DNA of 64,000 nt from Trebouxia sp. TZW2008 (lineage: Eukaryota; Chlorophyta; Trebouxiophyceae; Trebouxiales; Trebouxiaceae). Below, piece after piece: positions 1-60,500 of this stretch (positions are counted from its first letter, which is position 1; each line of letters starts with the position of its first letter). Both the position numbers and the translations under genes were made by a program. The stretch covers positions 124,001 to 188,000 of the forward strand of contig BDIU01000009.1 of assembly GCA_002118135.1 (NCBI GenBank), written 5' to 3'. The notes beneath the pieces were generated by a model that saw nothing but the letters and a program-made list of their open reading frames with translations, made no database searches and was not told the DNA's origin.

Positions 1-5
1 TGCAG

Positions 6-3000: not shown

Positions 3001-6000
3001 GCTAGTGATGGACAATGCTACTGTGGTGACAATGTCGTAATGATGATGTCTCACAAGCTGGCGTAATCTTAAGTGTATGTGGGATGTCACCTGATGCACA
3101 GCAGTATACAGCTTCTGGCTTTGTCAGTGTCAGTCCAAGCACACAATGCATTGCCCTGGGTTTTCAGCGTTGTGTAACATGATACAAGTCTCCTGTTGCG
3201 GTAAGATTGCTTTCACTGTGTGTCTGCAACCCTGAACCCATGCTGCATTCTTGGCAGGGTGTATGAGGAGAAGCGGCGGCGTGACGTGGCCATGGTTGCA
3301 GCGCGCGCAGCACAGCAGGCACAGCGTGATGCTAATGCTGCCAGCAGAGGGCTTGCCCTGCTGGGCTGCCCCTGGCGTTCTGACTGTAAGTTTGCACTTG
3401 TTTTCCCAAGTGTTTTGGAGCAAAACGTTTGCTTGTGCAGCACAGCAGGCACAGCGTGATGCTAATGCTGCCAGCAGAGGGCTTGCCCTGCTGGGCTGCC
3501 CCTGGCGTTCTGACTGTAAGTCTGCACTTGTTTTCCCAAGTTTCTTGGAGCAATACGTTTGCTTGTGCAGCACAGCAGGCACAACGTGATGCAAATGCTG
3601 CCAGCAGGGGCCTTGCACTGCCTGGCCGCCCCTGGCTTTCTGACTGTAAGCCTGCATTTTGAATTCAGAAATCCGCATTTGCTTTGGATGTGGCTGCAGC
3701 TGCATTTTGCTCTGTCAGTCTGGCATCTCCTTCGCTCATTTGATCGAATGTTCTTCATTGGAAGCTCACCTGATTTCCTGTCAATTAGATGGCAGTGGGT
3801 TGAGCATGCATCTGTGATTTAGTCTGTGGAAGCATCCCTGTTGCAGTTGCATGCCAGGTGGCTCTGCGAAATGAGAATTTGCCTGTCCTTGGTCAGGCCT
3901 GCATGCTGTGCACGCTGTGCTGCAGCTTACTAGTCGATTTGGGCAGCTGCACTCACGCTGTGCATGCTTTGCTGCAGCGTCTTGAAATCCTCTATTTGCT
4001 TTCCCTGATCTCATGTTGTGCATGCTGTGCTACTTTTTGTGGACCTCCCCCATTCTCAAGCTGTCCTCGCTGTGCTGCAGCTTCTCAAGACCTACTATTT
4101 GCCTTCACTGCTCTTACGCTGTGCATGGTGTGCTGCAGCTTCCCAGGGCCTTCCAGCAGGCTCTTCGGCCTTCAAGACCAAACGGCAAGAGGCCAAGGCA
4201 GCTGCCGACGCTGCTGCTGCAGCAGCTGCTGACGCGTGTGCTGTGTGTGACAAGCTGTATGGGGAGGATGCTGACAGGGATGACACATGGATTGCATGTG
4301 ACCGCTGCAACCGGTGGTACCATGGCTTCTGTGTTGATATGACCCAGGTGAGACTTTACCTCATTATTCTGAGATTGCCTTCACATAGCAAATGTGTATT
4401 CTGCTAACTGCTGCTAGTTGCTTTGCCAGTCACATGGCTCAACAAGGCATGCCTGGGTTGAAGTCTCTGCATGCAAGAATGGTCTTTGGCAGCCAACAGC
4501 CCTGATTACATCATTATGAATCTTGTGAGCAAGATTTAGTGCTTGCAGAAGGTAGCAGTTGGCAACAGAAGCTGCAGATATAGGTGCTTGTCATAATGGC
4601 ATGACAGGCATGCTGAGCAGGGTTTGGTGCATGCACAGATTGTTCACTGACAATTCACAGTGCTAGCACAACACATAATGTGTGAGCACATGGAGATGTT
4701 TGTCTGCAAAACTTTGTGCCAGCATGACACAGTATACAGCTGCGAGTGCTTGACCATGCATGCAGGAGATGGTGAATGGTAACACTCGACACAGAAGGGC
4801 TTCATACAGGAGCGATCAAATGGCAGTCAACAATAACTGCAAAAGCCTCCATCCAAATGCATGTACACCACGCATATGATTTGTACTTGACTTGTGTGGC
4901 TTTGTGCGTGCAGGAGATGGTGGATGGTGTTGAGGACAAGAAATGAGAGTGCCCAGGGTGCACAGCCATCAAGACTGAGCAGCATCTGTCAACAGCAGCT
5001 TTGGAAGTTTTCCACGCAGTCACACTGATACAGCGTTATCACAGCTTATTTACTTGTTTGTTTGGGTCTGCAGGAAATGGTTGATGGCATGGAAGACAAG
5101 AAGTGGGAGTGCCCAGAGTGCACAGCCATGAGGACTGAGAGGCGGCGGCTGGCTGGAGAACGGGCCCGCCAGAAGCGTGCCTCACAAAGCAAACTTGCCA
5201 GGTATTAGATGATTACAGATGCACTCACTAGATGATTACAGATGCACTCACTAGATGACTACAGATGCACTTATCCCGCATGTGAGCAGTTGCTGTCACT
5301 GATCTGTGCACAGCTGTGGAAACTGAGCGCCAGCAAATAGCTGGAAGACAGGCCCGCCAGAGATGACCTCTTGAAGCAAACCTGCCTTGCAATCAGTGTA
5401 GATTATGTCTTGTGTGATTCAGCACAACTAAATGTCTGCCGTTTGCTGTGTGACATTTGCTGTCTTGCCCAATGCAGTTGCAGCTGCTGTTACTGACGCC
5501 CGTGGCCCATCCTTCAGTTGTGACAACTCTTCTTCTGCTGCAGTGCTCCCTCCGGCTCAGATGCCGGCCTTGACAATCAGTCATCAGGCCCAGGGCGGGA
5601 AACCAAGAAGTCCCGCCGTCCTAAAGCAGCGCCAAAAAGCAAGAAGAGGAAGGCTGCAGACGAGGCGGCGGGAACTGTCGGCGAAGCAGAAGAGGAAGAG
5701 TCGGAGCCTGTGGAGTTGTACTGCACCTGTCGTCAACCTGACGATGGGTTGCGGCAGTTCATCCAGTGCAATACATGCGATGATTGGTTCCACACAGATT
5801 GTGTTGGAGTTGATCTGCAGGTATGTACGACGGTCGTTCTAACACAAATATTGTTATCAGGAATTGTAGTGCTAGCGCTTGTAATGAAATAGCAAGGATT
5901 GCGGCAGTTCATTCAGTGCAACACATGCGATGATTGGTTCCACACAGATTGTGTTGGAGTTGATCTGCAGGTATGTACGATGGTCGTTCTAATACAAATA

Positions 6001-9000
6001 TTGTCATCAGGAATTGTAGTGCTAGCGCTTGTAATGAAATAGCAAGGATTGCGGCAGTTCATTCAGTGCAACACATGCAATGTTTGGTTCCACACAGATT
6101 ATGTGGGAATTGATCTGCAGGTATGTACGACGGTTGTTCTATCACAAATATTGTCATCAGGAATTGTAGTGCTAGTGCTTGTAATGAAATAGCAAGGATT
6201 GCGGCAGTTCATTCAGTGCAATACATGCGATGATTGGTTCCACACAGATGGTGTTGGAGTTGATCTGTAGGTCATCATCATTCTCGTTGCACAACATGTG
6301 CAGCAAAGGGCATCACACAGCTTGTGTAGGACTTACTTGTGCAAATGCATATGAGAAGTGCAAGGATGCAGAAGTTGATTTCAAGCAACAGATGCGACGA
6401 TTGGTTCCACACCGATTGCATGGGAGTTCACCTTCAGCTACACTTGATTGCTGTTTGGCCCCAGGTATTGTTTGTTTGGATTCATTTAGTTAAAGCTTGC
6501 AATGAAAACAGCAATAGTGGCAGCGCATACAGTGCAACACATGCGATGATTGGTTACACACAGATTGTGTTGGAGTTGATTTACAGGTAAGTATGGTAGC
6601 TGCTTAGCACAAAACAATGTGTCTTGTGGTCCTTGTGCTCATGCTCAAGATGACTATGGCAAGGACATAGATTGCACTGAATGCAACACCTGCAACGACT
6701 GTTTTCACACAGATTGCATTGGATGCTGTTGCTCCTCTGAGACTTGCTATTTGACTCATTCTGATCATGCTTTTTATGATAATAGTAAGGATGCGGCAGG
6801 GTCTATCTTTCAGATAACATAGCTGTTTTGATGTCAGCCTGCTCTTGGTGGTGGCCCTTCGCCAGTGAGCTGTCTATGAGAACCGTGTACAGCCATCATT
6901 TGTGCATCCCAAATCCCCTTTGTCATGCAATGTCATGCTGATCCTCTGGCTGCAGGAAAGTGACAGACGCTGAGGAATGGGCCTGCCGTTGTGTCAGCAG
7001 GCAGCTGCCAAGCAGCTGCGCAAGGCATCTTTGCAATTGGTCTCATGTCCAACTCCTCCTTACCATGTTTTTCCTGCTGCTTTTTGATTCTCATTCAGTC
7101 TCAGCACTTTTTTGGCGTGTTCAGGAAATGACAGAGGATGAGAAATGGGCCTGCCCGCTGTGTCAACGGGCAGCTGCCAAGCAGGTGCGCAAGGAGCAGC
7201 GCAGAGCTGAGGCGGAAGCTGCCGCAGAGGTTGAGCGCCAAGTCAAGGAAGCTCAAGCAGCCAGAAAAGCAAAGCTGGTGAGTCACGACTTGTTTTTTAT
7301 TTTGTTTATGCGTTCCTGCAATATATGAGGTACTGAAGGCAACAAGTGTATGTTTGGGGAGTTACCAGGTACAAAGGCTAGGGGCAACCCCAGAGACACT
7401 TGACAGACGACCGTGTACAAGGATTCCACTTCTCTCCACGCTCAATACAAATTTATTTAGGTCTAGGCTAGCACAGGACCAAACTGGTTGGACACAAATG
7501 CTTGCTGCATGAAATACCCAGCTGGGCCTGCTGAGCCTGTTCAGCACGCATTCAGCAGTAGAAGCAAATGAGGGCAACGGTTCTACGTGCTGTCTGTATC
7601 AACCATCCCATGCAATTAGCCTTTTTCCCTGCTATGACACGGGGTTTGTAAGCTATAAGCGCTTTTGCCCTACATGCTCTGGTCAAGAGTTGCTATAACT
7701 TCAGAACTTGCAATAGAACTCCCATGTGTGATTGGAATTCAGAGCCTTTCCACTTCCCTCTGTTTGATGAGAAAGAATGTAAGACTAGATAGACAAGCCT
7801 TTACTGACTATGCTGCGCTGTTATCCCTTGTCACACCTCACATGCATTTTTCTCCTCTCTTTGGTTGGCTTGGGATACAGTGTTTGGCTCTGTGCGCAAT
7901 CCTGTCACTTTATTGTACTTACTTTAATCACGTTCGTAGGCGGAGTTGGACATGAGCAGTTGGCCAAGAAACTGGCAGGCAGCTATCCAGAGAGTGCTGG
8001 AAGCTGTGCTGAAGCTGCCGGAAGCTGCCTGGTTTACCGAGCCAGTGCCCATGGACATCCCAGGGTATAGGGAGCAAATTAGCAACCCCATGGACCTGGG
8101 TACGATTTTGGGTAGGGCTAGGGCTGATGCCTATGATACACCTCTAGAGGCCCTTGAGGATGTGAGACAGGTAATGTGACAGCATGGCTCATGACATCAC
8201 GACTAATGAGAATATGACAAACACCCATGTGCTTCAACGGCACTGGATGCAAGGTGCATGTGATTGGGACAGACAGCATGGCAAAGAGTCTGACAGTTGC
8301 ATCATTGAACATCTGCTGCATCAGCGACATCTGGAATATTTTCCAACAAGTTCTAAGTTTTTCCAAGTTAGTTCTGCCGATGTTGCAGGTATGGCAGAAC
8401 TGCCACATCTTCAGTACTAAGGGCAGCAACACTTTGGACATTTGCTGATAGGGTCTTAGGGTTTGAAGTCAGTTCTGTTGCTGTTGCAGGTATGGCAGAA
8501 CTGCCGCATCTTCAATGCTGAGGGCAGCGATATTTGGGACACCTGCCAAGAGGCAGAAGACGCCTTTGATGCCAGCTGGAGTTCTGCTAGGCTACCCCTA
8601 CCCTCCCGGCCCCCTGTCCCCCCCTCCCTGCTTGCAAAGAAGAAGAGCAAAGCTGGCAGCAAGCGCCAGCGCGACAATGCAGGTAAAGCAGAAAACAAAT
8701 TGCTTATGCCATGCCTTTTGGCACGTCGATGCAAAGGTCATGGGTCCAAACAAGTTGGCCTGGCAAAACAGGACCTGACATGCTCATCTGACAGCCATTG
8801 TGACGTAGTAGCCGATTCAGTACGATCTATGGGCCTCAAATGATATCACGCTCACTCTGCCACAATGAGGCCAAACTGTTGCAGTTCAGGTTTGTCACAC
8901 CCATGCTAGAGCGTGATATCTTGAATTGCTGCTGTTTGGACACACTGGGCTTTGCTTACCTTGCGTCAATGCCTTGCAAGCAGGCTGCATACTGCACTGA

Positions 9001-12000
9001 CATATTAACTTTCGGTATGATCAGGCTTGTGCAATCAAAGTGTTTACCTGCCTGGATACTTCCCCTGTACGCATTCAGTTGATATGCTTGAGCCTGCTTG
9101 GTGAGCTTGTAGATGTTCAAATCATGTCAAAAGCATGCAATACTCGCATGAAGTCAATAGGGCGCTGACTCAAACTGGATTGATTAAGCTTGGCAAACCA
9201 AAAGTTTGCGTTCTGACCTACGCTGACAGCATGACGCATGACAGTGCATCGTTTGCAGTCAGCATAAATGATACATGTGATTTTGTGTCTACACCCGCCT
9301 GCTATGTGCATCACAGGAGACGTCTCTAGCAGTGGTGCACCAGCCAGCAGCAGTGGGCGGCACAACAAAGTGTCTGGCCACCGCCAGGGTGCAGCTCTTG
9401 AAGCAGATGCCACAGCTGGGGTCAGCGGTGGCGCATCAGCTCAGAAGCGCCGCCTAGTTGTGAAACCACCAAAGCAGCCTCAAGAACACCAACAGGAGGA
9501 CTCTGACACCTCAGATGCTGAAATCTCTGACAGTGATGAGTCACAACCACATGGGCGAGCTCACAGGATCAAGCTCAAAGTCAAAGGGTCAAAATCATCT
9601 CAGCGGCAGCAGCAAGCCAACTCAGCAGCTCAGAGCTCGCCCGCTGAGCTGAGTCAAGCTCGGAAGGTGGTGAAGGGGGTTCTGAAGTTGAAGGCAGCTG
9701 CACCATTCAGCAGGCCAGTGAATGAAGAAGAGGTGCCGGGATATGGGCTAGCAGTCCAACAGCCCATGGACCTGTTGACTGTGTCTACAAAGCTGAAGGA
9801 TGGACAATACCTATCACTGGGTACGAAACTCTGAAGTCCAACCCAACTTACCTTCTTGTGATCCTGTCAACCCCTCATCTAACCTGCTGAACCCCAGTGA
9901 ATGAAGACGAAACGCCTGGATGTCGGCTAGCAGTCCAACAGCCTATGGACCTGTTGACTGTGTCTACAAAGGATGAACAAGTTTCATTCCGTGGTGAGAG
10001 AATCTGGACTTTGACCCCACTAGCCTTCTTGTGATCCTGCTTACTCCTCATCTCTCCTGCCAAACCCCAGGGTGTAAGCTGACTGCAACTGACTGATTGG
10101 TTGGTTGATACCTGTCCCCGCACAAACGCGAGGTAGCAGGTATGCCTCACCCTGTAGGCAATACAGCAGGCTCATCTTGTTACCTTCGGGTGACTGCAAT
10201 GATCCAGCGCCAATCATCTGAAGCCAATGATCTGGTTTGAATGCTCTGATCTTGAGCAGCTGATCGCATCACTGACATCTTCAGGTCAGTTTCGTGAGCA
10301 CGTGGTCTTGACATGAGCTACTTGAAATGATCTGCTCAAACATCTGGGTTTTGATCATAAGATGCACAGGAGCCAGCTGCATTGCCAACATGTGCAACTG
10401 AAGTTCTGGGGGAAGTGGACGTGATTTGGTCTTACTGCTGCAGCTCCAATGAGCCAGCTTCTGAAACCTATGACCTGGCAGATCAGCCAATGATGATCTG
10501 AACGCACAGCTTCTATGCTGATGGCCGGTTTGCAGCCATATGGATCTGATGATACTATTGCAGTCTTGTGACCTGATGGTCTGATCTAAATGATATAATG
10601 TGCAGGTGAAGTTATGGGGGATGTGGATTTGATCTGGTCCAACTGCCGCAGCTTCAATGAGCCAGATTCTGAAATCTGTGATCTGGCAGATCAGGCACAG
10701 CAGGCATTTCGTATGCGGTGGCAGCAGGAGGGGCTACCCACTGTGACCCCCATGGCACCCACTCTGAAGAAGAAGCAGAGCGGCAAGAAGCGGGCTCTGG
10801 AAGCTGGTACCTGGATCTGCAAGATCTTTGCACAATGGGTCTTGTGGCAGACTATTGCATTGCATCAGTGGTGAAAAGCAGTGTGGCAAGCAAAGACCGC
10901 TGAGCAGGCATACAGCTCTTGTGCGTTCTTGTGTCTGTTGGGTGACTTGTCATCAGGAAGGATTGGCAGTTACAATCACTACTGGACTTCCACTGAACCA
11001 GAACCAGGTTGTATTCTGCAACAACAGAGCATTGTGACATGTCACTGTGCCTCAATGTGCCTCTACAAATGACCCGGTAAACCATGACTTGACAGATTGT
11101 TGCATTTTGTTCTAGCATGAAACGTGTAAAAATCAGCACTTAAAAGATGATGACATCTTCATGTATGAACAGGTGCTTCTGATGCATTGCTCGAGGAGCA
11201 ACAGTTGAAGAAGAGCAAGAAGGCTGCAGGAGCTGACTCAGAAGCTACTGCAGCTGACTCAGCAGCTGAGCTGAGCAAGGCGCAGAAGGTCGTGAAGGGC
11301 CTCACAAAGCTCAAAGTGGCGGCTGCATTCGGTACCCCTGTCAGTGAAGAAGATGTACCTGGCTACAGCCTCGTGGTCCAGAATCCAATGGATCTTGGCA
11401 CTGTGCTGGAGAAGCTGAAGACTGGGGACTACTCCTCATCAGGTACTTTCTGATCATGATCATTCATTTGAACATGATGCAGTCGTCCTGGAGGGATTCT
11501 TGAAGGGCTCTGTCTGTTGTTTGTTTGCTTTGCATTAGGAAACACTCAACTGATGCATGTCATGTCACACCTCCAGCAAGCACGCCATGCATGCAAGTAC
11601 GCAGCATGGCCAGTAGCTTTGGAGGCAGTCCTTGCCTTTCCATGTCACGCCATATTGTACAGCAAGAGCACCATGTATACTAGCAGCATTGACAGCGTTT
11701 GTGCTGTGTCGTACCAGCTGGAGATTCATACGTTGTGATCTTGCAGAGCTTGCCTGCAATTGTGAAGATGCCCTAGTTGACTGAAAGCAGGACTGTTAAC
11801 ATAGCAGAGGAAGGCAAACATTCCTGTGTATGATCCACCAATGTAGGCAAATTTGCAGAGCATGCATACTTTGCCGACCTGTGTCAGCGGCAGGGTTCAG
11901 AGATCTATACTGCTATGCTCTTTGCTGAGTGGGCTTGACTAATGTTTTCTTTCCTTCACAGCATGCATCACCTGTAATGAGCATAGCCCATATTGCTGAC

Positions 12001-12888
12001 ATGTATTCTGACCATTGGTTGAACCCTGCAGGCGAGGTGTACTCAGATGTTGAGTTGATCTGGCAGAATTGCCACAGCTTCAATGAGCCAGATTCTGACA
12101 TCTGCACGGCAGCCACTGAAGCTCAGCGGGCATTTCATGACAGGTGGCAGCAGCAGGGCTTGCCACATCAGCAGGCCAAGCCTGGCAAGAAGAAGAGCGG
12201 CAAGGCCAGCAAGCAGGCAGCTGCTGCAGAAGCTGATGACAGCAATTCTGGCAAGAAGAAGAGCGGCAAGTCTGGCAAGCAGGCAGCTGTCGCAGAAGCT
12301 GATCAGGGGACCCCTGGTGGGAAAAAGAAGGGCGGCAAAGTCAGCAAGCAGGGTGCTGGTGATGATCCTAGCTCTTCAGCAAAGGCATATGCTGTCAGAA
12401 GCAAAACAGACACAGCTGCAAACAGGCGGGAAAGTCAGGATGCCGGGAAAAGCTTGGCGGCAAAGCCACAGCAGACAGCTAAGCGAAAACGTGGTGAGCC
12501 AGCTGATGATGATCATGACCCTCAGCCAAGCAAGAAGAGCAAAGGGGAAGCTGATCAGCAAAGCAAGAAGAGCAAGGGGCCATCAGATCAGCATTTGGCG
12601 CCAGAAAAGCTGAGCGCCAGTGCGCGATTGCGGAAGGGCTTGCCTCCCACACCTCCCCTCAGGGTTTCTCCCAGGGCGGGAAATGCTGAAGCAGCCGCTG
12701 ATGAGTCAGCAGCAGCGAGTAATGTGTCAGCAGCAAATGATTTGACCAGCAAGGCTAAAGGGAAGAGTGCAAAAGGAAAAATCAAAGGGGAGGCAAAAGA
12801 AGATGCAAGTGATCAGCATGACCAGCTGAAGGAGGGCGAAGTCATTGAACAGCTTACTGCAAGGCGCACCAGCGGACGGCTAAAGTAG
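6..12888 (+). CDS. DDT-PHD/BPTF-like chromatin reader, 2 PHD fingers and 3 bromodomains (5' partial)
   Basis: The gene enters the window already in an exon (open after CAG at 3-5, with no ATG). It probably encodes a nuclear histone reader of a remodelling or transcription complex. An acidic exon lies near 402-641. The exon around 1920-2944 carries ALQLRRLDSFIQW and a Gln-rich stretch, then LPLWLIR; from memory these resemble plant DDT-PHD (PTM-type) proteins. PHD1 is CAVC..CDRCNRWYH (exon to 4347) completed by CPEC (5074-5201). PHD2 is LYCTCRQPDDG..CNTCDDWFHTDC (about 5544-5820) completed by CPLC (7125-7277). Bromodomain 1: 7940-8170 plus 8490-8682; bromodomain 2: 9317-9820 plus 10606-10806; bromodomain 3: 11173-11442 plus 12032-12888. 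Each has PMDL and an NCxxFN acetyl-lysine site. Phases agree from 7125 to the TAG. The tail is Lys/Ser-rich and ends SGRLK. Metazoan BPTF has one bromodomain, so three is unusual. A split into two genes near 2950-3250 cannot be excluded. Confidence 0.85.
730..940 (+). mobile_element. dispersed repeat family 1, copy 1 (intronic, SINE- or MITE-like)
   Basis: About 200 bp of non-coding sequence ending in a GAATG-type tail (AGAATGAATGAAATGAATG). It shares long blocks such as GTTGGGCCTGCTGAGCCTG with 7347-7572 in the same orientation and 18745-18970 in the opposite orientation. It carries no ORF of its own. The class is not established, because no clear terminal repeats or pol III boxes were seen. 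Confidence 0.6.
955..1045 (+). pseudogene. decayed copy of the exon edge at 560-641
   Basis: The block AGCAAGTGGtGtACAAGCT and the following bases repeat the end of the upstream exon (571-641) with many substitutions. It lies in the following intron, so it is a donor-side duplicate. Confidence 0.45.
1333..1500 (+). repeat. duplicated exon edge coding LAWRGAxQ with donor
   Basis: The segment CTTGCCTGGAGAGG, then G.GC.TGCAG and GTGA, occurs at about 1333-1360 and again at about 1468-1495. The first copy belongs to a plausible exon ending KHLALQARLAWRGAMQ before GTGAAC. The second keeps the GTGAGC donor but has lost the upstream half of the exon. It is another donor-side copy placed downstream of the working one. 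Confidence 0.5.
1757..1856. repeat. (CAT/ATC)n microsatellite
   Basis: An imperfect ATC trinucleotide run with ATT and GTC interruptions, in an intron of the chromatin reader gene. Apparent poly-His and poly-Ile frames through it are artefacts of the repeat. Confidence 0.95.
3311..3645 (+). repeat. three tandem exon+intron units, period 130 bp, frame-neutral exon
   Basis: The CACAGCAGGCAC block starts at 3311, 3441 and 3571. Copies 2 and 3 are complete: CAG acceptor, 75-nt exon (3441-3515 and 3571-3645), then a GTAAG donor. Copy 1 is fused to the upstream exon and ends at 3385. Each 75-nt exon encodes 25 residues beginning AQQAQRDANAAS with no stop, so including zero, one or two extra copies keeps the reading frame. 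This is the one array here that could truly lengthen the protein. Confidence 0.85.
4755..5073 (+). pseudogene. dead acceptor-side copies of the PHD1 second-half exon
   Basis: Copies of CAGGAGATGGT(G/T) plus downstream exon sequence begin near 4763 (short fragment) and 4911. The second reads EMVDGVEDKK and then hits an in-frame TGA before the ECPGC that matches ECPEC of the working exon at 5074-5201. The working copy is the last of the series. Confidence 0.8.
5202..5400 (+). repeat. short tandem repeat and decayed copy of the PHD1 exon end
   Basis: GATGATTACAGATGCACTCACTA-type units of about 22-24 bp repeat at about 5207-5270. Near 5335 GCTGGAAgACaGGCCCGCCAG repeats the 3' part of exon 5074-5201, which reads GCTGGAGAACGGGCCCGCCAG. 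Both are non-coding intron content. Confidence 0.55.
5744..6720 (+). repeat. 150-bp tandem array of the PHD2 exon 3' half with donor
   Basis: The block TTGCGGCAGTTCATxCAGTGC starts near 5746 (inside the working exon), 5896, 6046 and 6196, a strict 150-bp period. Copies 2-4 keep the DWFHTD-type sequence and a GTATGTACGA donor (lost in the fourth) but have no acceptor; AAATAGCAAGGA precedes each. More decayed copies lie near 6385-6450, 6515-6590 (donor kept) and 6675-6725. Substitutions alter zinc ligands and neighbours, for example CGA to CAA and GAT to GTT in copy 3. All are spliced out if the first donor is used. Confidence 0.9.
6949..7040 (+). pseudogene. dead acceptor-side copy of the PHD2 completing exon
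   Basis: GCAGGAAAGTGACAGACGCTGAGGAATGGGCCTGCC matches the working exon start at 7125 but carries an extra base near its 5' end, which puts the W-A-C codons out of phase with the acceptor. It lies upstream of the live exon. Confidence 0.8.
7347..7572 (+). mobile_element. dispersed repeat family 1, copy 2 (intronic)
   Basis: Starts GTATGTTTGGGGAGTTACCAGG and contains AGCTGGGCCTGCTGAGCCTG. It aligns along its length to the copy at 730-940, but is more diverged and lacks the clear GAATG tail. It sits in intron 7278-7939. Confidence 0.55.
8387..8450 (+). pseudogene. dead copy of the bromodomain 1 second exon
   Basis: After CAG at 8386-8388 it reads VWQNCHIFSTKGSNTLDIC and then stops. The working exon at 8490 reads VWQNCRIFNAEGSDIWDTC. 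The dead copy lies about 100 bp upstream with a similar TGTTGCAG acceptor. Confidence 0.85.
9893..10010 (+). pseudogene. donor-side copy of the bromodomain 2 first exon
   Basis: Repeats the exon 3' end (AGTGAATGAAGA..., PMDLLTVSTK) downstream of the working donor at 9821. An internal deletion removes part of KLKDGQY. A GTGAGA donor-like site remains. Confidence 0.8.
10412..10500 (+). pseudogene. dead acceptor-side copy of the bromodomain 2 second exon
   Basis: Reads GEVDVIWSYCCSSNEPASE-like sequence. A small deletion in the DQAQQAF region then brings a TGA into frame. The working exon is at 10606-10806. Confidence 0.8.
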
Positions 12889-13302: not shown

Positions 13303-16300
13303 ATGTCACTAGCAACGATCACCCAACGTCCCCTGCCAACGCGCTTACGAACCCATCCTTGCGGCACCAGGCGCGCGCGATGCCCCACCGCACGATCTTT
13401 CACGCAGCACGCTGAACCTGCGGTGGTGCAGTTCAAGAAGGACGACCAACACTTCGTGACGAAGGGTCTGCAGACTATTGGAACGGTGCGCAACGGACTG
13501 TGATTCGATTGCGCCACTAAAACTCTGCTAACCTAGGCTGAAATCCTGTTAGCTTTTGCTGTAGGCTTTCGTAAGCGACGCCGTCACTAAGTATCTGGCA
13601 CCAGGGGCCGAAGCTGATAGCTGCATCCAGAAAGTGCGGTCTTATGGCGAGTACCAACTGGCGGAATCCAGCTCGGCCGACCTTCTTTTCCAAGCCGAAG
13701 ATTGTGCTGCTGCTGCCTTTTGCTACCGGATACCGGAACAGCTGGTACACAAACTTTTGCTGCGCTTTAGTCCCAAGGCAATGACTAATGTACAAGTTGG
13801 CTCAAGCACAAGCAGCTCATCACATGCATGCAGACATTGTCAACATAAGATGCCATATTTTGATGAACTGCACACCGTGTGAATACATCGCCAAAGCCTT
13901 CAAGAAAATCTGTGAACTTCTGATGTATTTCAACATCATAAACTGACTCTCTTGACGTTGTCTGTATGACCCCCTGTTGGGTCTCTATGGCAATGAAACT
14001 TGATTGATTGATAAAGTGGCGACTACAATTTTACATTGTGCAGGCACTAGCTGCACCTGAGGAACAGCCACAACAGCTACCAGCTAAAAGCAATCCAGCA
14101 GAGCTTCTGGATCTGTGTTTTGCAAAGGGCAGACAAGATTTTCTGCAGGTATGTGGACACTCTTTTCTTAGCACATGCCTGATCATCAGTCAACATGCCT
14201 TAAGTTCTGACAACCCAGTCATCACTTCAAATCCAGTGATTCAAGTTCATGTATCTGTCCTTGTTCAAACTTCTTTATACTCTCGCTCATTAGAGCTTGC
14301 ATACTTTGAATGTTGTGATGACTTACTTGCGCAGCGCAGTATATATGATATGAGTTTGGTCAAAGTATGTGCTTGGCTGCGTATACAAAGCTTGACATGC
14401 CCATGAGCATGTCACAACGGTGCATGGCTTACTGGAGCCATGTAGCAAACCAAACAGCAACTAAAGCAAACAACATGTCTACTGATTGTCCCATGCTCAG
14501 TTCAGTCCCTCAAAGCTCTTGAAAAGAAACGTATACATTAGGCATAGCCCGGGATATGCAGGAACATGGCCCCTTCATTCTGGTGAGCTTGATAGGCGTG
14601 CATCCCGACAAGCAGCGCCGGGGCTTAGGCGGGCGCCTCCTGACCATGGTGAGCATCCCCCTCTTCTTCCCTTTTCTCCTTCTCCCCTTCTTCTCTTTTC
14701 TCCTTCTCCTCTTCTTCTCCTCTTCTTCTTTGTCTTGTCTGCTTACAGAAAGCACTCCTGAGTCACCAGACAAGAAACGCTGTGGCTTAGGCGGCTAACT
14801 CCTGACCATGGTGAGCATCCTTGTCTTCTTCTGTTTTGTCCTCCTCCTCTTCTTCTTATCTTTTCTCGTTCTCTTCTTCTTCTCCTCTTCTGTGTCTTGT
14901 CTGCATACAGAAAGCACCCCTGAGTCACCAGACAAGCAGCGTCGTGGCTTAAGCGGCCGCCTCCTGACCATGGTGAGCATCCTCTTCTTCTTTTTCAGTT
15001 GTCCTTCACCTTTTTTCCTTCTCGTTTCTTCTTCTCCTCTTCTTCTCCTTTTCTTCTGTGTCTTGTCTGCATACAGAAAGCACCCCTGACAATCAGGCTG
15101 GCAGCGCCAGGGCTTACGCAATCGCCTCCTGATTGAGTATTCCTTTCTTCCCTTTTCCTCCTCTTCTTCTCCTCTTTGTCTATGTCTTGTCTGCATAGCA
15201 GCGTAACCATGTTTTCTCCTTTTTATTGCTGTTGGAAAAAGACGTACAACTGCATGGCCATGACAACCAGCCTTGCCTTTTCCTGTCATGCTTTGTCATC
15301 AGGCAAACAGCTCAACGAATGTCAGTAAGTAGTCCCATTCATCTTCGTCCATGTCTTGTATGCACACAGGTGCATTCGCAGCTGAACACTCATAATGACC
15401 AGTCTCAGTATTCCTCTTCTTCTTGTCTTGATGTACAAATCTGCAGCTGCATGACCATGGTGAGCTGCATTGCTCCCCTTATGCCATATTTGATCTGTAT
15501 ACAAATTTGGCTGCATGAATAGTCCTCACAGTTTGACAGGGCGCTCCATTGCAAATGTCCACTGACAGTTCAAATCTCAGGACTGATGGAAGTTCTGGAG
15601 TTTCTTGACTGCTGGAAGTTGTGCAACTCCCAAATGCCCAAGAATTGGAAATCTCCATGCAAGTTTGTGCTGCAGTGCCTTGTGAACGTACAGGTCTTAT
15701 AGGGTGCAACCTACAACTGCATCTGTCCAGCATTGTTGTAATCAGCATTTCCAAGGCACAGTAGAGATGCCTTTGGCAGTTCATAAAATTTACATGCATC
15801 TTTGGCCTTTCATTAACTGTAGTGTACTCTTCACCAAAAACCTAAACCCTACATCCGCGTGCCTAATTCCCAAGGGTGGACCTAATATGAAACTACAACA
15901 CAAATTAGTAAATCCAATTTTCCAAAACCCTAAATCAAACCTGAGCGTCAAGAGTACACTACATTTACGGAAGAATCATTTTTGGGCGCTAGTGCCTACG
16001 CCAAAACTTGCAGCTTGCTGCCAGAATTCTGTATCAGTGACCTGTTGTCATCAGTGTGTTGTCCTTTGCCACATACATGCACGTAATGCTGTTGCAAGAA
16101 CCAGCAGCAACCTGACTCAACTTGACTTAGCATGTAGCACTTGCAGGATAGCAATACATTGCAACTGTATTCAGCTTGTATCTCCTCAAGCATGTGGGGA
16201 ACAAATTTCGCTCACTGCCTGCATGACGTCTTGTGAAGTCTTGCCCTGGTCCCTCATCTGCTCCAAACAGAAGCAAAATATGTTTCAGGGAAACAGAAGC

Positions 16301-16651
16301 GAAATATGTTTCAGGGAGTTGCCAGTACAGCCACCTGCTCAGCCTGCTTCCCCTGATGGCAGATAGGGACCGTTGCAGGCAAAGACAGAAGTGGTTCTAT
16401 GTGGAGGCTAGCTCCGAAGCCAATGCAGCCATGTTCATGAAGCATGGCTCTGTCCCACCTTGCATTCAAGTTGCTTGTTTTAATTGCAGATAGGGACCAT
16501 TGCAGACAGAGAACAGAAGTGGTGCTATCTGGAAGCTAGCTCTGATGCTAATGCAGCTATGTACATGAAGCATGGGTTTGTTCCATTGTCCACAACTCGC
16601 CCAGAACCTGAAGGGCCGCTGATCAAGCTGATGGGGCGGCCGCCACAGTAG
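13303..16651 (+). CDS. GNAT-family N-acetyltransferase, copy 1
   Basis: Transfers an acetyl group from acetyl-CoA to an unknown amine; the family is recognised, the substrate is not. Phase-checked exons: 13303-13485, 13565-13744, 14044-14148, 14562-14648, 16490-16651. The acetyl-CoA loop is GVHPDKQRRGLGGRLL (exon 4), matching the Q/RxxGxG signature. The last exon carries ADREQKWCYLEASS and YMKHGF, the usual strand-5 and C-terminal GNAT motifs. The proposed ATG opens a Ser/Thr/Arg-rich leader (MSLATITQRPLPTRLRT), suggesting plastid or mitochondrial import. Exons 2, 3, 4 and 5 have the same lengths (180, 105, 87, 162 nt) as the paralogue downstream. A further small exon near 14501-14530 (SLKALEKK-like) is possible but could not be placed in phase. 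Confidence 0.78.
13970..14015 (+). repeat. possible retroelement 3' end with TTGA tail
   Basis: TGACCCCCTGTTGGGTCTCT forms a small hairpin (GACCC/GGGTC) and is followed by ATGGCAATGAAAC and a TTGATTGATTGAT run. This looks like the 3' end and tail of a non-LTR element, but only one copy is visible here. Confidence 0.35.
14590..15140 (+). repeat. four tandem copies of the GNAT acetyl-CoA-loop exon edge in pyrimidine-rich intron
   Basis: CGACAAGCAGCGCCGGGGCTTAGGCGG..CTCCTGACCATGGTGAGC begins near 14605 in the working exon. It recurs near 14770, 14930 and 15095 at about 160-bp spacing, each copy separated by TTCTTC-rich tracts. Copies 2 and 3 keep the CCATGGTGAGC donor; copy 2 has a stop (GGCTAAC) and copy 4 has lost the donor. 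These are donor-side duplicates. Confidence 0.88.
15818..15963. mobile_element. MITE-like element with 14-bp terminal inverted repeats
   Basis: TGTAGTGTACTCTT at 15818-15831 is the exact reverse complement of AAGAGTACACTACA at 15950-15963. The 146-bp element is AT-rich inside, has no ORF, and contains two telomere-like CCCTAAA-type words. It lies in the last intron of the first GNAT gene. Target-site duplication is unclear; TTAA/TTTA flank the ends. Confidence 0.65.
16358..16450 (+). pseudogene. dead acceptor-side copy of the GNAT copy 1 last exon
   Basis: Reads ATAGGGACCGTTGCAGGCAA and KWFYVEASSEANAAMFMKHG, closely matching the working exon at 16490-16651. A one-base shift between its acceptor and the KWFY segment breaks the frame. 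The working copy is downstream. Confidence 0.85.
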
Positions 16652-47800: not shown

Positions 47801-49554
47801 ACAAACGATCATGTCACAAACAAGTGCCTGTTGAGCTGATGCATATGTTCAAAAGACTGCATTGCATAAGCTGAGTACAATGCTAGCTGTCTGTTGCTGC
47901 CAAGACGGAGTCAGAAGTCTAGCACCTGAACATGCACAAAAGACCATGTCACAAACAAGTGCCTGTTGAGCTGATGCACACTGTGAAAAGATTGGACTGA
48001 ATGGGACTTGTACTGTGTCAGCTCTCTTTTTGTAGTCAAAACGCAGTCAGAAGTCTAGCACTTGAGGTATAGGCCACCTGGGGCCAGCCCTGCATGACCA
48101 ACATGGGTACAGGGCAGTTGGAACAGCCCTGTGTGACTCACCAGGGTATAGGCCATCTTGAAGCAGCCCCAATTGATCAGCCACCGCACGTCTGGTTCAC
48201 GTAATGAGAACAGCATGCCCAGTAGGTTGGCTTCAGGCGTGTTAGGGGCAACACTACTGTGCATCATCATATGGACTGTCCGATCCTCCAAGGGCAACAT
48301 TTTGAAGCCCATCAGCACTGCCCTAGCCGCTTTGCTGCATCAACGCAATACAAAGCTGAACATACATATCCATTTCTATGTATTGAGTATACATATGCTT
48401 AATAAAGGCATATGTATCCAATGGCAGCATTTTGAAGCCCATTAGCACTGCGCTTGCTGCTTTGCTGCATCAATGCAAGACAAAGTTGAGAATACATATC
48501 CATTTATATACACTAAAGTAGGTAACAGCACATGTGATGACACATGTTTGTTCTTACGCCCTCGCTGCTTTGCTGCATCAATGTGATACAAAGTTGAACA
48601 TACATGTCCATTTCTTCCTTATATATTGAACATACACATCCATAGTGTAGAGATATGTAGACATAACACTTCTGTATGTTGGACATAAATGCTCATTTTG
48701 ATATGTGAAGTAGGGAATAGCGCATGTGATGACAGGTGCGTATTACAACGCTCAAAACTAACCAGCCTGGCAAGACAGGACTTGGGCCACGCACACTTAA
48801 CACATGTGCTGGAAAGCATAAACAACCATCATTGCTGCTGCTGCTGCTGCTGCTGCTGTTGCTGTTGCTATTGCTGTTGCTGTCATCAATAACATCAATA
48901 TTAACATTACCATTATTGTTGTTATTCGTGTTTTATTTCTGACATTACCGTTGTCACTATCATTGTTGAACAAAAGGAAGACGATGGGCAGCTCACTGTA
49001 TAGGCAGCATGGCTCTGCGCCTCCCTGATGACTGATGTTCATTGGAGTACTTGTTCTCGGCTTTTTCCAACGCTACGGCAATCTGCTCAATGGACTCTGA
49101 GAGAGTATCTAGGCACATGATGGACTCGCAGCACGCCCTCACAAAACATGCCAGAGCTTCAGTTTCTTGTCTCTTTCTGAGATAGTCCTGCAGTGTGACG
49201 CAGGTTGGCAGGGCGTAGCAGGAAGCGTATCTTGGACACGTGTTTGAGTCATGTCAATGAGTGGCGTGCTGGATTGAGTGAATGCCATTTGTTTGGAGTA
49301 ATCTGCAAGGCGGACATTGACGCAGTGCACTTTCCAGATTTGCCAGCCACACAGATCACTTGCAGTCCGGCGTAACTCAATCAAGTGGCGCTGTCGTGTA
49401 CCTTGCACGTCTTGGCAAGTTCGAGGCTCGACACCAGCTTTGCAACCTCAGGCGGGGAATTTACTTTGTCTGCTCGTGGTATCGCAAAGATGTCGGGAAA
49501 GCCACTCAAGCCAGGCAAACCAGGCAGACCACCACCTCTTCTGAAGTACTGCAT
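41853..49554 (-). CDS. helical-repeat protein with C-terminal MYND finger, paralogue B
   Basis: Same family as A and C, with unknown partner. Recognised exons: 49402-49554 (ATG, Gly/Pro-rich GGGLPGLPGLSGFPD), about 49037-49204 (KRQETEALACFVRACCES), 48142-48334 (KAARAVLMGFKMLPLED), about 47035-47250 (DTHPATLQAGAQLYLL), about 45713-45795 (SAVLHILQGMYMMLQ), about 44350-44430 (ELQAAADKVM), 42380-42680 (ending CARCNKYIAQ), and 41853-41999 (MCQHCHAAFYCSAYC..HKVAC, TAG). The finger is complete across the split. Coding content is only about 1.2 kb of 7.7 kb; most of the remainder is arrays of dead exon edges. Upstream of ATG 49554 the frame continues open without another ATG. Confidence 0.73.
42690..43590 (-). 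repeat. copies of the paralogue B zinc-half exon start
   Basis: In plus sense, AACTGGCTCCCACACCCGCCACTCxTCCCTGCAAA marks the working exon edge near 42655-42690. It recurs near 42836, 43047, 43265 and, decayed, 43545. Copies 3 and 4 also include GGTGAATCTGGCTAGTGGGTGG and CTGTCTCAAT, so long units of about 200 bp were duplicated. All lie on the upstream side in transcription order. Confidence 0.88.
44430..45010 (-). repeat. seven-copy array of a short paralogue B exon (ELQAAADKVM)
   Basis: In plus sense, AAGCTTGGCCTGCCATTGCTCTCCTGCA-type blocks occur near 44414, 44510, 44608, 44714, 44784, 44882 and 44970. The associated TGACCTTGTCTGCAGCxGCxTGAAGCTC block repeats with them. The working copy is judged to be the one at lowest coordinates, followed by a GTGAGC donor near 44350; the others lack a good donor or hold stops. 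Confidence 0.85.
45880..46560 (-). repeat. four or five copies of the paralogue B GYLTALQGGDAAS exon start
   Basis: In plus sense, GATGCTGCATCACCGCCTTGTAATGCCGTCA(G/A)ATAGCC recurs near 45908, 46065, 46197 and 46328, about 130-155 bp apart, upstream in transcription of the working exon at 45713-45795. Divergence increases with distance. Confidence 0.85.
46600..47034 (-). repeat. tandem copies of the paralogue B intron/exon edge near 47035
   Basis: GCTCAAACTCCTCAAGA..AAGCTTGGG, ACCAGAAATACAAGxTGCA and TGATxTCAGATGGxCTCTGAG blocks repeat near 46620-46700, 46790-46920 and 46990-47110. They include parts of the exon at 47035-47250 on its donor side. A CTCAAGACTCGAGA microrepeat is embedded at 46853-46885. 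Confidence 0.65.
47285..48060 (-). repeat. six-copy 136-bp array of a paralogue B exon start
   Basis: Anchor GTGCCTGTTGAGCTGACGCA (plus sense) at 47287, 47414, 47551, 47688, 47824 and 47959; spacing 127, 137, 137, 136, 135. Each unit holds part of RLRLNSDREQLMYSAYATQ with its acceptor. The middle units are nearly identical, implying recent expansion. Confidence 0.92.
48345..48660 (-). repeat. dead copies of the paralogue B exon 3 start
   Basis: GCTGCTTTGCTGCATCAATGxxAxACAAAGTTGA (plus sense) is repeated near 48455 and 48568 after the working edge at 48322-48334. It comes with CATACATATCCATTTCT blocks of the neighbouring intron. Confidence 0.85.
48768..48890 (+). mobile_element. dispersed repeat family 2, copy 2, with (CTG)n tail
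   Basis: CTGGCAAGACAGGACTTGGG, then ACACATGTGCTGGAAAGCATAAA, matches 23575-23660. It is followed at once by a CTG-rich run at 48832-48882 and further ATT/AAC simple sequence. Confidence 0.6.
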
Positions 49555-56423: not shown

Positions 56424-57585
56424 GCTCGACACACCAAATTCAGGCGCTCAAGGCACGCTAGCGAAATATGATCAGCTCAAGCAAGGTGGGAGCTTGATCA
56501 CTGCAACAGCTCCAGACGCGTTCAGCTTCAACCTCGTACGTGCGGCTACTTTGACTTCTGTGTCTGTTCAACCTGCGGACGCGATGTCGCTGTCTCTTCC
56601 ACAAATCTATGCACGGCAGAAGTTTTGCATGAAGTGCCGTTTCAAAAGTTGGTTTCGGCAGGCTCGGTGCAGGAACTCCTACCAGGAAGGAGGGGGAGGA
56701 GCGGTTTTACGTCCTTAGAAGGCTGTGATGGATTTGCCAACAGGGGAGGGGGCTCTGGTCATGTTCAGCACTTCTGAACAATCTAAGATGAAATTGAAGA
56801 CTTGCATACCGTATTTGTGAAAAGAAGAGGTTGCTTTGTTGTGAAGGGAGTTGAAACAGAAAAGCATACTTGATCCTGAGTGCTGAAGCACGGGCCATTT
56901 ATCAAAGTGTGTGATTTGCATCACGTAGTGAACGTTAATGGCCTGCAGGCATGCAGACACAGCCACTGCTCATAGACCATTTCGCTTACTGCTCACTGTG
57001 GGCTGGTTGTGCCGCTGCCTAGCACAGAAAGTCCTGCAGACTTACTATCATTATCAACATGGATGGAATGCTGATTAATCTATGCAAATGGTATTTTGAC
57101 GCAGCTCCACTCTTGCCATGTGATGCCTGGCCCGATGTTGTCCATTCATTTCACAGGCTTTTCTGACGCATAGATGCCGACGTGCTGAAAACGCTTTGTG
57201 TTCTGCAAGCGTGCTGCATATTGCAGACAGAAGCGGTTTGTAATACTAAGCAAGACTTTGGAAACTTCACGCATTGCAAGACCATATACTTCCTTTCTGC
57301 AGATTCTGTCAATAAGGCTTTTGCGACTTTGCCTGTTGGCCATCTTGCTATGACAGCCTTTGTTGTACACAGCCTGCACAACAGTCCCGCCTTGTAAGCA
57401 AAAGTCACAGCAACGCAATCAGATGTTTGCATCTTCTGAGCGCAATACATCAACTGTGTCATGTACTTGCATCAGCATGGCGCAAGCTAACAAAATGGCT
57501 AAATACTTCCATGTTTCATGTGGCTACTGCTGATGCAAAGCTGCTGAAGCTCACCTGCTGATGGGTGAATAGACTCTGCAGAAAG
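56424..57585. other. spacer between paralogues C and D, CpG-rich near 56430-56720
   Basis: Contains the likely promoter of C. A plus-strand ORF at 56422-56718 begins at an ATG that overlaps the C start codon region on the other strand; it has no recognisable domain. The rest (56720-57585) shows no supported gene. Confidence 0.45.
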
Positions 57586-60500
57586 TCAGGCCCTCCTAGG
57601 TCTTGGCTTGGGTTTTGGCGCTGTTGTAAGGCGCATATTGCTCTGCTCAGGGTGCTGCACACCCACAGTGCCACAGTCAAGGCAGGTAGTGCTGCTGCTT
57701 GACACTATGTTGCTGTTTGACACTATGGTGCTGTCTGATGCTGAAGCAGCTTGCTTTTTGATGCGTTTGCCTGGTCTAGGTTTGGGGCGAGAGGCCACAC
57801 TAGCTGAAGTCTGCTGTGCCTGCTCACTGGTCGATGTTGCTATTGCAGAAGTGCGATCGGCTTGCGCTTGCTCTGCGGCCTGAGGGGATGCTGTCTGCAA
57901 TCTAATAGCTGCTGCTGTTGCTGCTTCAGCTCCAGCCACAGCTGCTGCAATCCTAGCTGCAGCTGTTGCCGCTCTTACCACATCGTTATTTGCCAGGTCA
58001 TTTGACACTGCGGTTCTGTTTGCCAAATGCTCAGTCACAGCTGACATCTGTGCTGTGTTGACTCTGGCTGCCGCCGACTGTCCCTGAAGCTTGCTGCCTT
58101 GTGACATTTTTCTGGTCTCTGCATCTGCATAGAGTGCAGCTGGTGGCTCATTTTCAGTTGCCTGTTCTAAGTTGCTCTTACTCTTACTCTTCCTTTGCTT
58201 GGCTTTGTATGCTGCAGTGGCTTCTGCAATCGGAGCCAATGCTGAACCCCTGTGCACTGGCAAACCAATTGTGCTGATCTCATATGTGGCATGTGCTGCT
58301 TGTCTGTTTAGCTGTTCCACTGCGTCTGCAGTTTGGGGTGCTGATGCTGTTAGAGCAGGCAGTCTAGAGACTGATGGCTCAGCTGTTGCATCCTGAATGA
58401 GTGATGCAGGTGGTGAGCTGTCAGCCTTGCTGCCTGAGGGGTCCTCGTCACTGTTGCTGCCTGAGAAGTGTTCTTCATTGTTGCTGCCTGTTGAGGGCTG
58501 CTCTCCACTGCAACTGCCTTGGTGCTCAGATTCAGCCATGGGGTGTTTGAAAAACACCTTACAACACCTTAGCACCTCGGGCTGCTGTGGGGAGTTGAGC
58601 CCAAGCTGAGGCAGCTGCTGCACTAAGAATTGAAGCTGCTGTGCATGGCCTGTCAGCCACTCAAGGCATTCTGGGTCTTTGAGCCACTCACGGACTTCTT
58701 GGTTGTCCAGATTCAAAAGACTGTGTAGTACTTCGTCATTTGCTGTCTGGCTGCCACTGTAGTACTCAACAGCCGCATCAGCAGCTTCCATAATTTGGTT
58801 GCAGTGATCAATGCTGTGTGCTTTTGGTCTAGGTTTGCCTTGTTTTCTGCTGTGTGCATCCGCAAGCTTTTGCCTGTTGATGGCTTCCAGACCAGGTGGG
58901 AATTTGGGGTCTAAGTAGTCAAGCAGATCCTGAGGAACTGCTGAAGCATCACCAGAGACTAAGCGCTTCAGGGTCAGTTTGGCGCGTATGATGCCTTGTT
59001 CGATTGCAGCAGAAGACTTGAATGTGCGCCTGCAGTGCTTTGCATCTGCGACGCTGATGTGCAACCTGCTTTCACATGTACAGTGTGTTCAGTTGCGTAC
59101 AGTCTGATGAGCACATTCACCTGGCTTGTGCATATATGCAAAAGTCTGATGACCATACACGTGGGATATGTCAAGCTTGCAGTATGCTGTGCGAGTGAAC
59201 AGCAGGTGTATCACTTGTGGCGCTTTCCTTAAGCATGAGCATACCCTAAGAGCCCTTGCAAGGGCTCTGAAGGTCTCTCAAACATTTGATATGAGCAAAA
59301 TTAGTATTGCAGGATCAAGCTTGGCAGAGACATGTGAACATGATGGGTTTGGTACCTCTCCCTTTGCATCAGCTTTTGGTGTAACAGCTGTGGCAGATGA
59401 TGCTTAACAATATGCAGTCATGACAGCTTATGGCAGGCTTTGCAGCAAGCTGCAATCACTTAGCTTCTGAAAAGCAATCAGCACGTGTCAAAGCTCAAAG
59501 ATGCATGCAGTCTTTGTGATGACAAACTTACCCTATCTGATCCTCTGCTCGTTTCACCGCTGACAACAGAGGCTGAATGACATGCTGGAGCTTGAGTGTG
59601 TCTGCAACCCTGACAGCACGCTCATAGTGCAGCTGCAGTACAAGCAAAGCATGTGATGTCTGTATGGCATTGTACATTCCACTTCATGCAAAGATAGGCA
59701 GTGCATACAGGGACTGTGACTACAGAGAGTGACACTGCAGGTAATGCAACTGAAAGGAATGCGACTGCAACAAATGTAAGCGCAGTCAGTGCAACTGAGG
59801 CTACATGATAGTCGACTTGGGCTGTCCAAGAAAGAAGTCTGCTCTGAAAGACAGCTACTTGCTTCAGCATAGCATGCTTGATGCCTTTGCTTGGCAATGC
59901 TGCAATGTAAACAAGTCCAAGCTGTGCTTGTGTGCTGCTTCTGCAGCGGGTGAAAGTCCACTGACTTAGATATCTGCAAAGAGCTGGTTCCAGCACATGC
60001 AGTCTAACAGAAAGGGCCACGCACCAGCAGCATGATGTACATGCTCTGCAGAGCGTACTGGATCACATCTACATCATGACCACCATCCATTGCAGTCACT
60101 GTGGCTTGACACATGTACCTGCAGCACATCAAGCTTTGCTCTGTGTGGCAAGTTGTGAAGTGTCTATGACAGCAACCTGAGAGCATTTGTGTGAGTGCCC
60201 ACTTGCAAGCTTGTAGCAAAATTGATTAATACTGCTATGGCATGCAAGTAACCTTTTATTGGGTATGATGCAAGCCCGTCAGATACAAGTATATGCAGTT
60301 AGCACAGAGCCTGTGAACCACATCCCGTAGCTCAAAAATGCACCTGGTTCATTCTCACTTCAGCTGCCCTGCATTGCTTCAAAATTCAGCTCTGCATGCA
60401 AGCTTGTTGTGGACACCTCAGGCAGCCTTGATTGGGCCGTGCTATGTCATGATGCCAACTGCAGCTTGGCTATCTGTCAGGGTGTGCGGCGACATTTCAA

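What the first reader, a model, noticed from the sequence alone, without database searches (positions are those of the whole stretch)
3311..59064. Introns grow by tandem duplications that span exon edges
In the DnaJ, GST, GNAT, chromatin-reader and MYND genes, introns hold tandem copies of the neighbouring exon edge. Acceptor-side copies (intron end + AG + exon start) always lie upstream of the working exon, as at 4911, 8387, 10412, 16358, 25050, 27615, 28930, 31236, 33105, 34731, 39557 and 47285. Donor-side copies (exon end + GT + intron start) lie downstream, as at 5896, 9893, 14770, 28545 and 32685. This polarity is what a duplication crossing a splice site must produce. The gene survives by splicing to one copy, the rest decays, and the intron lengthens. 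Families with no relation to each other share the pattern, so it is a genome-level process. I know of no named mechanism described this way.
Basis: partly seen in the sequence, partly recalled or inferred. Interest (0 to 1): 0.9.

Follow-up and report, generated by a model that had tools for sequence, protein, structure and literature searches.

The report
Introns lengthened by exon-edge duplications
In a green alga whose proteins match Trebouxia, stretches of about 150 bases lie in side-by-side copies across the borders of coding exons, copies of an exon's start before it and copies of its end after it, and these leftovers have likely made the introns grow one duplication at a time.

Summary
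All 17 cited sites lie in local direct repeats; 16 fit an exon edge on the stated side (12 in protein-mapped genes), 39557 does not. A protein identical to the nine DnaJ exons, on a 4.7-kb contig shorter than the 9.3-kb gene, contains none of the copies. Of 83 exon-derived copies, 46 upstream ones reach the exon start, 29 downstream ones the exon end (3 uninformative), 8 touch neither edge, none is wrong-sided. Ab initio genes and arbitrary loci agree, with one formal exception. Direct pairs outnumber inverted 306 to 2. Spacing has a median of 147.5 bp, near one nucleosome. Copies decay near-neutrally with mild coding constraint. Implied insertions equal about 44% of intron bases in the two mapped genes, which were not chosen at random. 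The polarity is largely a filter: only this arrangement leaves the protein intact. Edge preference is suggested, not proven. Growth over time and the source of the duplications are inferred. Density is patchy: 18-28% of bases in five samples, 1-2% in two. Internal tandem duplication is known; lengthening introns this way and at this scale appears undescribed in the papers searched.

The parts
26720..36043 (+). DnaJ / DnaJ-X gene, 9 coding exons: 26720-26954, 27186-27310, 28163-28438, 30460-30741, 31432-31599, 32429-32594, 33891-34087, 35285-35404, 35936-36043
   Evidence: P0001 (559 aa) matches these exons exactly; PF00226 and PF14308
27597..28051 (+). Three acceptor-side copies of exon 3, upstream of it
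28548..28673 (+). Donor-side copy of exon 3 (GC donor), downstream of it
   Evidence: 83% over 126 bp
28928..30459 (+). Eight acceptor-side copies of exon 4 (spacings 179-197 bp, 4 of 8 being 192); absent from P0001
31233..31334 (+). Acceptor-side copy of exon 5
   Evidence: 82%
31948..32324 (+). Three acceptor-side copies of exon 6
32689..32955 (+). Two donor-side copies of exon 6
33006..33838 (+). Decayed, overlapping copies of exon 7, upstream of it
   Evidence: 8 hits, 5 reaching the exon start
34302..34400 (+). Donor-side copy of exon 7
   Evidence: 75%
34726..35284 (+). Three acceptor-side copies of exon 8 (184-185-bp units), with the intron part repeated
35484..35531 (+). Donor-side copy of exon 8
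1..12885 (+). Chromatin-reader gene; starts 8958 bp upstream of the window
   Evidence: 27 exons mapped with P0121, Trebouxia sp. C0004; P0121 bears PF00628 and PF00439 (domain names PHD and bromodomain recalled)
971..1053 (+). Donor-side copy of exon 403-643
   Evidence: 80%
3437..3659 (+). Two donor-side copies of exon 3258-3385 (130-bp units)
4887..4979 (+). Acceptor-side copy of exon 5074-5201
   Evidence: 81%
5896..6723 (+). Six downstream copies of the end of exon 5544-5820, 74-96% identical, first units 150 bp; 5 reach the exon end
6953..7025 (+). Acceptor-side copy of exon 7125-7277
   Evidence: 88%
8322..8452 (+). Acceptor-side copy of exon 8490-8682
   Evidence: 74%
9894..10070 (+). 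Donor-side copy of exon 9317-9820; the gapped alignment crosses the edge, the exon-only alignment stops 28 bases short of it
10390..10489 (+). Acceptor-side copy of exon 10606-10806
   Evidence: 84%
14766..15197 (+). Downstream copies of the GNAT exon piece ending near 14648
   Evidence: exon set by hand and by gene model
16345..16457 (+). Acceptor-side copy of GNAT exon 16490-16651 (gene-model exon)
25075..25226 (-). Upstream copy or copies of a GST-like exon at about 24943-25039
   Evidence: frame read by eye
42799..43294 (-). Acceptor-side copies of gene-model exon 42380-42683 (MYND region)
44489..44968 (-). Upstream copies of gene-model exon 44350-44435, 5 of 6 reaching its start
47304..47925 (-). 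Upstream copies of gene-model exon 47039-47253, 3 of 5 reaching its start
39526..39904 (.).

Best explanation
Tandem copies of roughly 150-bp segments straddle exon edges in most sampled parts of this Trebouxia-like genome, copies of exon starts lying upstream and of exon ends downstream, and they are likely the debris of repeated tandem duplications by which introns would lengthen step by step. Shown: the copies, their polarity, their direct orientation, the unit size, the absence of the DnaJ copies from the encoded protein, and near-neutral decay. Inferred: a duplication that crosses an acceptor leaves [intron end + exon start] twice; only the downstream copy still runs into the rest of the exon, so splicing there keeps the protein and the upstream copy becomes intron. 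A duplication across a donor is the mirror image. Each event would add one unit, and later events would put fresh copies next to the working edge. The likely source is a high rate of nucleosome-sized direct duplication, most plausibly from lagging-strand flap errors or fill-in of staggered breaks; this last step is untested.
For: Polarity: 0 wrong-sided of 83 (80 informative), 0 of 43, 1 formal exception of 22. DnaJ protein without the copies, on a contig shorter than the gene. Spacing of successive exon-derived copies, n=82: median 161, 10-90% 120-192; local direct repeats regardless of annotation, n=140: median 147.5, 65% within 100-220 against 12% if uniform over 15-1000. Direct 306, inverted 2. 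Nearest copy more similar than farthest in 13 of 17 families. 13 of 75 copies carry in-frame stops, 15 of 75 frame-shifting gaps. Splice dinucleotides kept at 34 of 46 acceptor and 20 of 29 donor copies (17 of 26 without the three unreliable GNAT entries), about 71% expected if neutral. Introns with copies, n=19: median 753 bp; without, n=15: 467; implied inserted length 9,820 of 22,552 bp. Same pattern in kinase, DnaJ, AAA and kinesin loci on other contigs, picked because they showed copies.
Against: No sister genome was read, so growth is not shown directly. Third-position changes are 0.489 of mismatches (family bootstrap 0.445-0.531) against 0.41-0.43 for simulated neutral copies, and stops are fewer than simulated (13 against 19-21), so some copies were or are probably translated. 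Two of seven sampled stretches have almost no such duplications. Of 94 repeat families, 56 touch an exon edge, 22 lie in gene spans without exon contact, 5 inside exons, 11 outside gene models (exon calls incomplete). Four of 17 families show no near-to-far decline. 8 of 83 copies touch neither edge. XPG-family (flap-nuclease type) domains are present, so nothing points to a lost FEN1.
Confidence: 0.85

Rival explanations
1. The copies are alternative exons or in-frame protein repeats that the cell uses.
For: In the exon-4 array 4 of 8 spacings are 192 bp (64 codons), no stop occurs in 8 copies, mismatches are 33, 17, 74 at codon positions 1, 2, 3, and a 339-codon open frame covers about two thirds of it. 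Many copies keep AG or GT.
Against: P0001 lacks all of them; 13 of 75 copies have stops and 15 have frame-shifting gaps, one of these in the exon-4 array; only 2 of 52 upstream copies span a whole exon; spacings divisible by three are 33 of 82, near one third.
Confidence: 0.1
2. Exon edges are in no way special: tandem duplication is random, selection removes exon-breaking events, and edge copies stay visible longer because one side is a conserved exon. This would leave the best explanation standing but remove any edge targeting.
For: Polarity follows from survival alone; intron parts decay on both copies and are often no longer alignable; 22 families in gene spans touch no exon. Counting all three intron-only families gives 3 of 11, P = 0.12 with residual intron lengths.
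Against: With exon-derived parts masked, 8 families adjoin exon copies and 3 do not, and those 3 are a 52-58-bp repeat, an ATC microsatellite and an array that abuts an acceptor. Random placement predicts 50-68% intron-only; P runs from 0.00004 to 0.12 with intron length and the treatment of the three. 56 of 78 families in gene spans touch an edge, P about 0.0001 against 50%, with longer visibility of edge copies not corrected for.
Confidence: 0.5
3. Assembly artefact.
For: None found; reads could not be checked.
Against: Copies differ from the exon by up to about 29%, with a gradient in most families, and recur on many contigs.
Confidence: 0.02
4. Mobile introns (introners) or another dispersed element fill the introns.
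For: A dispersed repeat of about 220 bp exists in the window.
Against: Exons match their own neighbouring introns (60 hits) and hardly other introns of the gene (2.0 scaled).
Confidence: 0.02

Closest known systems
[quoted passage not shown] potato RdRp case, PMC4974935, passages read; Drosophila cases, PMC2891723, passages read)
   Same: Tandem duplication of an exon-containing segment; splicing rescues the product; [quoted passage not shown]
   Different: There a new intron arises. Here existing introns lengthen: the segment crosses one existing splice site and no new intron is needed.
Tandem exon duplication / mutually exclusive exons (PMC9013439, passages and Results section read)
   Same: Exon-derived copies in introns. 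Its survey finds homologs at 80% identity or more for about 2% of human, 0.08% of fly and 0.06% of worm exonic nucleotides.
   Different: The focus there is on duplicated exons offered to splicing. Here most copies are one-edge fragments; a comparable ratio (other program, two genes not chosen at random) is 2.40 and 1.22, where human is about 1.02.
Internal gene duplication (Gao and Lynch 2009; seen only as cited in PMC4974935, paper not held)
   Same: Internal tandem duplication in genes as a common process.
   Different: Not read, so whether it treats edge-crossing fragments or intron length is unknown to me.
Small tandem duplications by Pol alpha-primase fill-in at breaks (PMC8355091, passages read)
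   Same: Direct tandem duplications arising by break repair.
   Different: Framed there as short (<100 bp) insertions; here 28 of 140 spacings are under 100 bp and the median is 147.5.
FEN1-linked small inverted triplications, 148/160/148 bp, breakpoints near nucleosome midpoints (PMC13334657, passages read)
   Same: Nucleosome and Okazaki-scale unit length; it also reports more tandem duplications on loss of Rad27.
   Different: Inverted there; here direct, 306 to 2.

Membership tests
[quoted passage not shown]
   No sister genome DNA could be read
[quoted passage not shown]
Tandem exon duplication / mutually exclusive exons | Copies comprise whole exons with both splice sites | tested here: not met
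   2 of 52 upstream copies span a whole exon; the 3 downstream START+END cases are the short GNAT piece that I cut
Tandem exon duplication / mutually exclusive exons | Copies are included in alternative mRNAs | not testable with these tools
   No RNA reads; P0001 includes none
Introners | Related sequence dispersed among many introns | tested here: not met
   60 adjacent against 2.0 (scaled) non-adjacent exon-intron hits in two genes; intron-to-intron similarity genome-wide was not tested
Break-repair small tandem duplication | Direct, head-to-tail orientation | tested here: met
   306 direct, 2 inverted pairs
Break-repair small tandem duplication | Short unit (under 100 bp in the paper's framing) | tested here: inconclusive
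   28 of 140 spacings under 100 bp, median 147.5
FEN1/Okazaki-type duplication | Unit length of nucleosome or Okazaki scale | tested here: met
FEN1/Okazaki-type duplication | Breakpoints at nucleosome midpoints or fragment ends; impaired flap processing | not testable with these tools
   No MNase or replication data; XPG-family domains are present

The most novel reading that the evidence does not exclude
An intron ratchet: in Trebouxia a nucleosome-sized duplication process acts on exon-bound nucleosomes, exon edges are its preferred survivors, and this alone, without transposons, has supplied a large share of present intron length across the genome.
Probability: 0.3. Interest if true: 0.88.

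Novelty: new variant of a known kind. Interest (0 to 1): 0.75.

Why it matters
How introns lengthen without transposons is hard to document, because the source sequence usually decays beyond recognition (general knowledge). Here the source is the neighbouring exon, which stays conserved, so each event keeps a readable birth mark: which edge, which unit, how old. That would make intron growth measurable in a genus with several sequenced genomes. The narrow, nucleosome-like unit size is a clue to the mutational process, and rows of intact splice sites raise a testable question: how splicing picks the right copy.

Tried and rejected
A first gene-finder setting gave 20-bp exons and was dropped; the second is used. 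A script with a wrong anchor failed and was corrected. Selective loss of splice sites in copies: not seen, AG/GT decay at about the neutral rate (an indel beside an edge counts as lost, so the kept counts are low estimates). Frame-length selection on units: 33 of 82 divisible by three. Inverted or fold-back mechanisms: 2 inverted pairs. A lost flap nuclease: no support. A MYND-region protein search gave nothing. The rRNA search failed.

Protein-level tally over six Pfam families, read by eye from capped lists: start-sharing upstream pairs on C73, C130, C4, C328, C79 and C33. DNA fetched for these six confirmed five; at C33 no acceptor copy was found, so that overlap was an alignment artefact, though the locus has a donor-side copy. 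End-sharing downstream pair in the window; C157 possible, unverified. Overlapping but unclassifiable pairs on C273, C32, C441, C193, C182, C144, C275 and C119. I saw no clear wrong-sided pair.

Papers: ten searches (listings seen) showed no work on edge-crossing duplication as a way of lengthening introns, nor on this pattern in Trebouxia; the library holds open-licence papers only. PMC12712428 (passages) has 'intron' once, in a reference. PMC6564038 (passages) describes an intron length cycle in Tetrahymena LRR genes driven by retrotransposition, a different cause. Gao and Lynch 2009 is not held.
Full report
Setting. The window is contig C9:124001-188000 of an unnamed 68.5-Mb, 527-contig genome. 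The DnaJ protein's best named matches are Trebouxia sp. C0004 (84% identity) and C0009 (76%), so I treat the organism as Trebouxia or close kin; no species name was established.

Are the copies real? A self-comparison and Tandem Repeats Finder show many local direct repeats. All 17 cited sites have a local direct match, the first-listed one 73-94% identical. Sixteen fit an exon edge on the stated side: 12 in protein-mapped genes, 3 by gene model or hand-set exon, 1 by eye. The site at 39557 is a 62-bp array without an exon that I could recognise.

Which copy is the working one? For DnaJ, P0001 (559 aa, source label 'lgn', contig of 4,709 bases) matches nine window exons exactly; these span 26720-36043, or 9.3 kb. 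A contig shorter than the gene that carries the uninterrupted protein is, I infer, a spliced transcript; I take the label to mean an assembly of public reads, from recall. The protein has one copy of each exon and none of the extra ones. For the chromatin reader, P0121 of Trebouxia sp. C0004 (64% identity, 95% of the scored region) maps collinearly; the aligner gave 29 pieces, and I merged two pairs split at gaps, giving 27 exons (used from then on). P0121 is a predicted protein, so this gene has homology support, not RNA support.

Polarity. In these two genes 68 exon-intron tests gave 60 hits: 34 upstream copies reach the exon start (2 of them span the exon), 19 downstream copies reach the exon end, 7 touch neither edge, none is wrong-sided; reversed introns gave 1 hit and non-adjacent introns 2.0 scaled. 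Copies occur at 13 of 34 acceptor edges and 10 of 34 donor edges. With GNAT and six loci on other contigs (kinases, DnaJ, AAA, kinesins) there are 83 copies: 46 upstream reaching the start, 29 downstream reaching the end, of which 3 from a short GNAT piece are uninformative, 8 internal, none wrong-sided. With ab initio exons of other genes on both strands there are 43 copies at 19 of 73 exons, 8 internal, none wrong-sided; one comes from the C1 stretch, and one GNAT copy is in both sets. Four 8-kb stretches at arbitrary positions gave 22 copies at 10 of 26 exons: 8 upstream start, 11 downstream end, 2 internal, 1 wrong-sided, the last inside another predicted exon at 66% identity. Much of this polarity is a filter: only this arrangement leaves the message intact.

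Decay. Over 75 copies of 40 bp or more, mismatches are 285, 231 and 494 at codon positions 1, 2 and 3. The third-position share is 0.489 (bootstrap by family 0.445-0.531). Simulation (equal rates on both lineages, transition bias 2) gives 0.41-0.43 for a neutral copy and 0.51-0.67 for copies that accept 60-20% of amino-acid changes. Stops occur in 13 copies (19-21 expected if neutral), frame-shifting gaps in 15. So decay lies near neutral with some coding constraint, marked in the exon-4 array, which may be translated in some messages. Splice dinucleotides: 34 of 46 acceptors and 20 of 29 donors kept, 17 of 26 donors without three unreliable GNAT entries, about 71% expected. The nearest copy is more similar than the farthest in 13 of 17 families (sign test 0.049, Wilcoxon 0.017), as expected if new copies arise at the working edge.

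Size and orientation. Spacing between successive exon-derived copies has median 161 bp (10-90%: 120-192, n=82, two of them, 16 and 22 bp, being fragments of one decayed array). Without annotation, 140 local direct spacings in 175 kb have median 147.5, 65% within 100-220, with a small second mode at 50-80. Direct pairs number 306, inverted 2. The share of bases in such pairs (offset 60-500) is 28% and 26% in the two C9 stretches, 23%, 20% and 18% in three arbitrary loci, 2% in L018 and 1% in C1.

Intron length. In the two genes 19 introns with copies have median 753 bp and 15 without have 467 (P 0.0009); subtracting implied units leaves 312. Implied units sum to 9,820 of 22,552 intron bases, 44%; directly alignable exon-derived sequence is 4,961 bases, 22%. 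The window was picked for this feature, so these shares are not genome averages.

Are edges preferred? With exon-derived parts masked, 8 families adjoin exon copies and 3 do not: a 52-58-bp repeat, an ATC microsatellite and an array abutting an acceptor. A ninth edge family, around chromatin-reader exon 3, is seen only. Random placement predicts 50% intron-only with residual and 68% with present intron lengths; P runs from 0.00004 (0 of 9) to 0.12 (3 of 11). With ab initio exons, 56 families touch an edge and 22 in gene spans do not, P about 0.0001 against 50%, uncorrected for the longer visibility of edge copies. This suggests, but does not prove, a preference.

Mechanism. Shown: direct, unit near 150 bp, repeated at the same edges. 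Inferred: a replication or repair process with nucleosome-scale units. A 2026 paper links FEN1 to inverted triplications of 148/160/148 bp with breakpoints at nucleosome midpoints, and Rad27 loss to more tandem duplications (PMC13334657, passages); another derives small tandem duplications from fill-in at breaks (PMC8355091, passages). Neither fits fully. XPG-family domains are present; one matching exon appears in three tandem copies at the profile level, not checked in DNA.

Comparison with known kinds. The Rogers model duplicates exonic AGGT to make a new intron (PMC4974935, passages); here existing introns grow. In a survey of tandem exon duplication, homologs at 80% identity cover about 2% (human), 0.08% (fly) and 0.06% (worm) of exonic nucleotides (PMC9013439, Results section); here, with another program, the ratio is 2.40 and 1.22 for the two genes. 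I call it a new variant of internal tandem duplication.

Noticed in passing
717-940, 7342-7555, 18746-18959 (reverse), 38185-38301 (reverse): A dispersed repeat of up to about 220 bp, 68-86% identical between copies, both orientations; not part of the tandem pattern.
   Followed up: no
28438/28439: DnaJ exon 3 ends at a GC donor (CAG|GCAAGT), and its downstream copy keeps the same GC donor.
   Followed up: partly
   Followed up: partly
G000:C57:178778-179254: An XPG_I-domain exon (flap-nuclease family) matches three times in tandem.
   Followed up: no
G000:C1:100001-128643 and L018: Nearly free of these tandem duplications although GC content is alike; the patchiness is unexplained.
   Followed up: partly
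10601-10732 and 12027-12158: Two exon starts of the chromatin-reader gene are paralogous (72%), probably an older domain duplication of a different kind.
   Followed up: no
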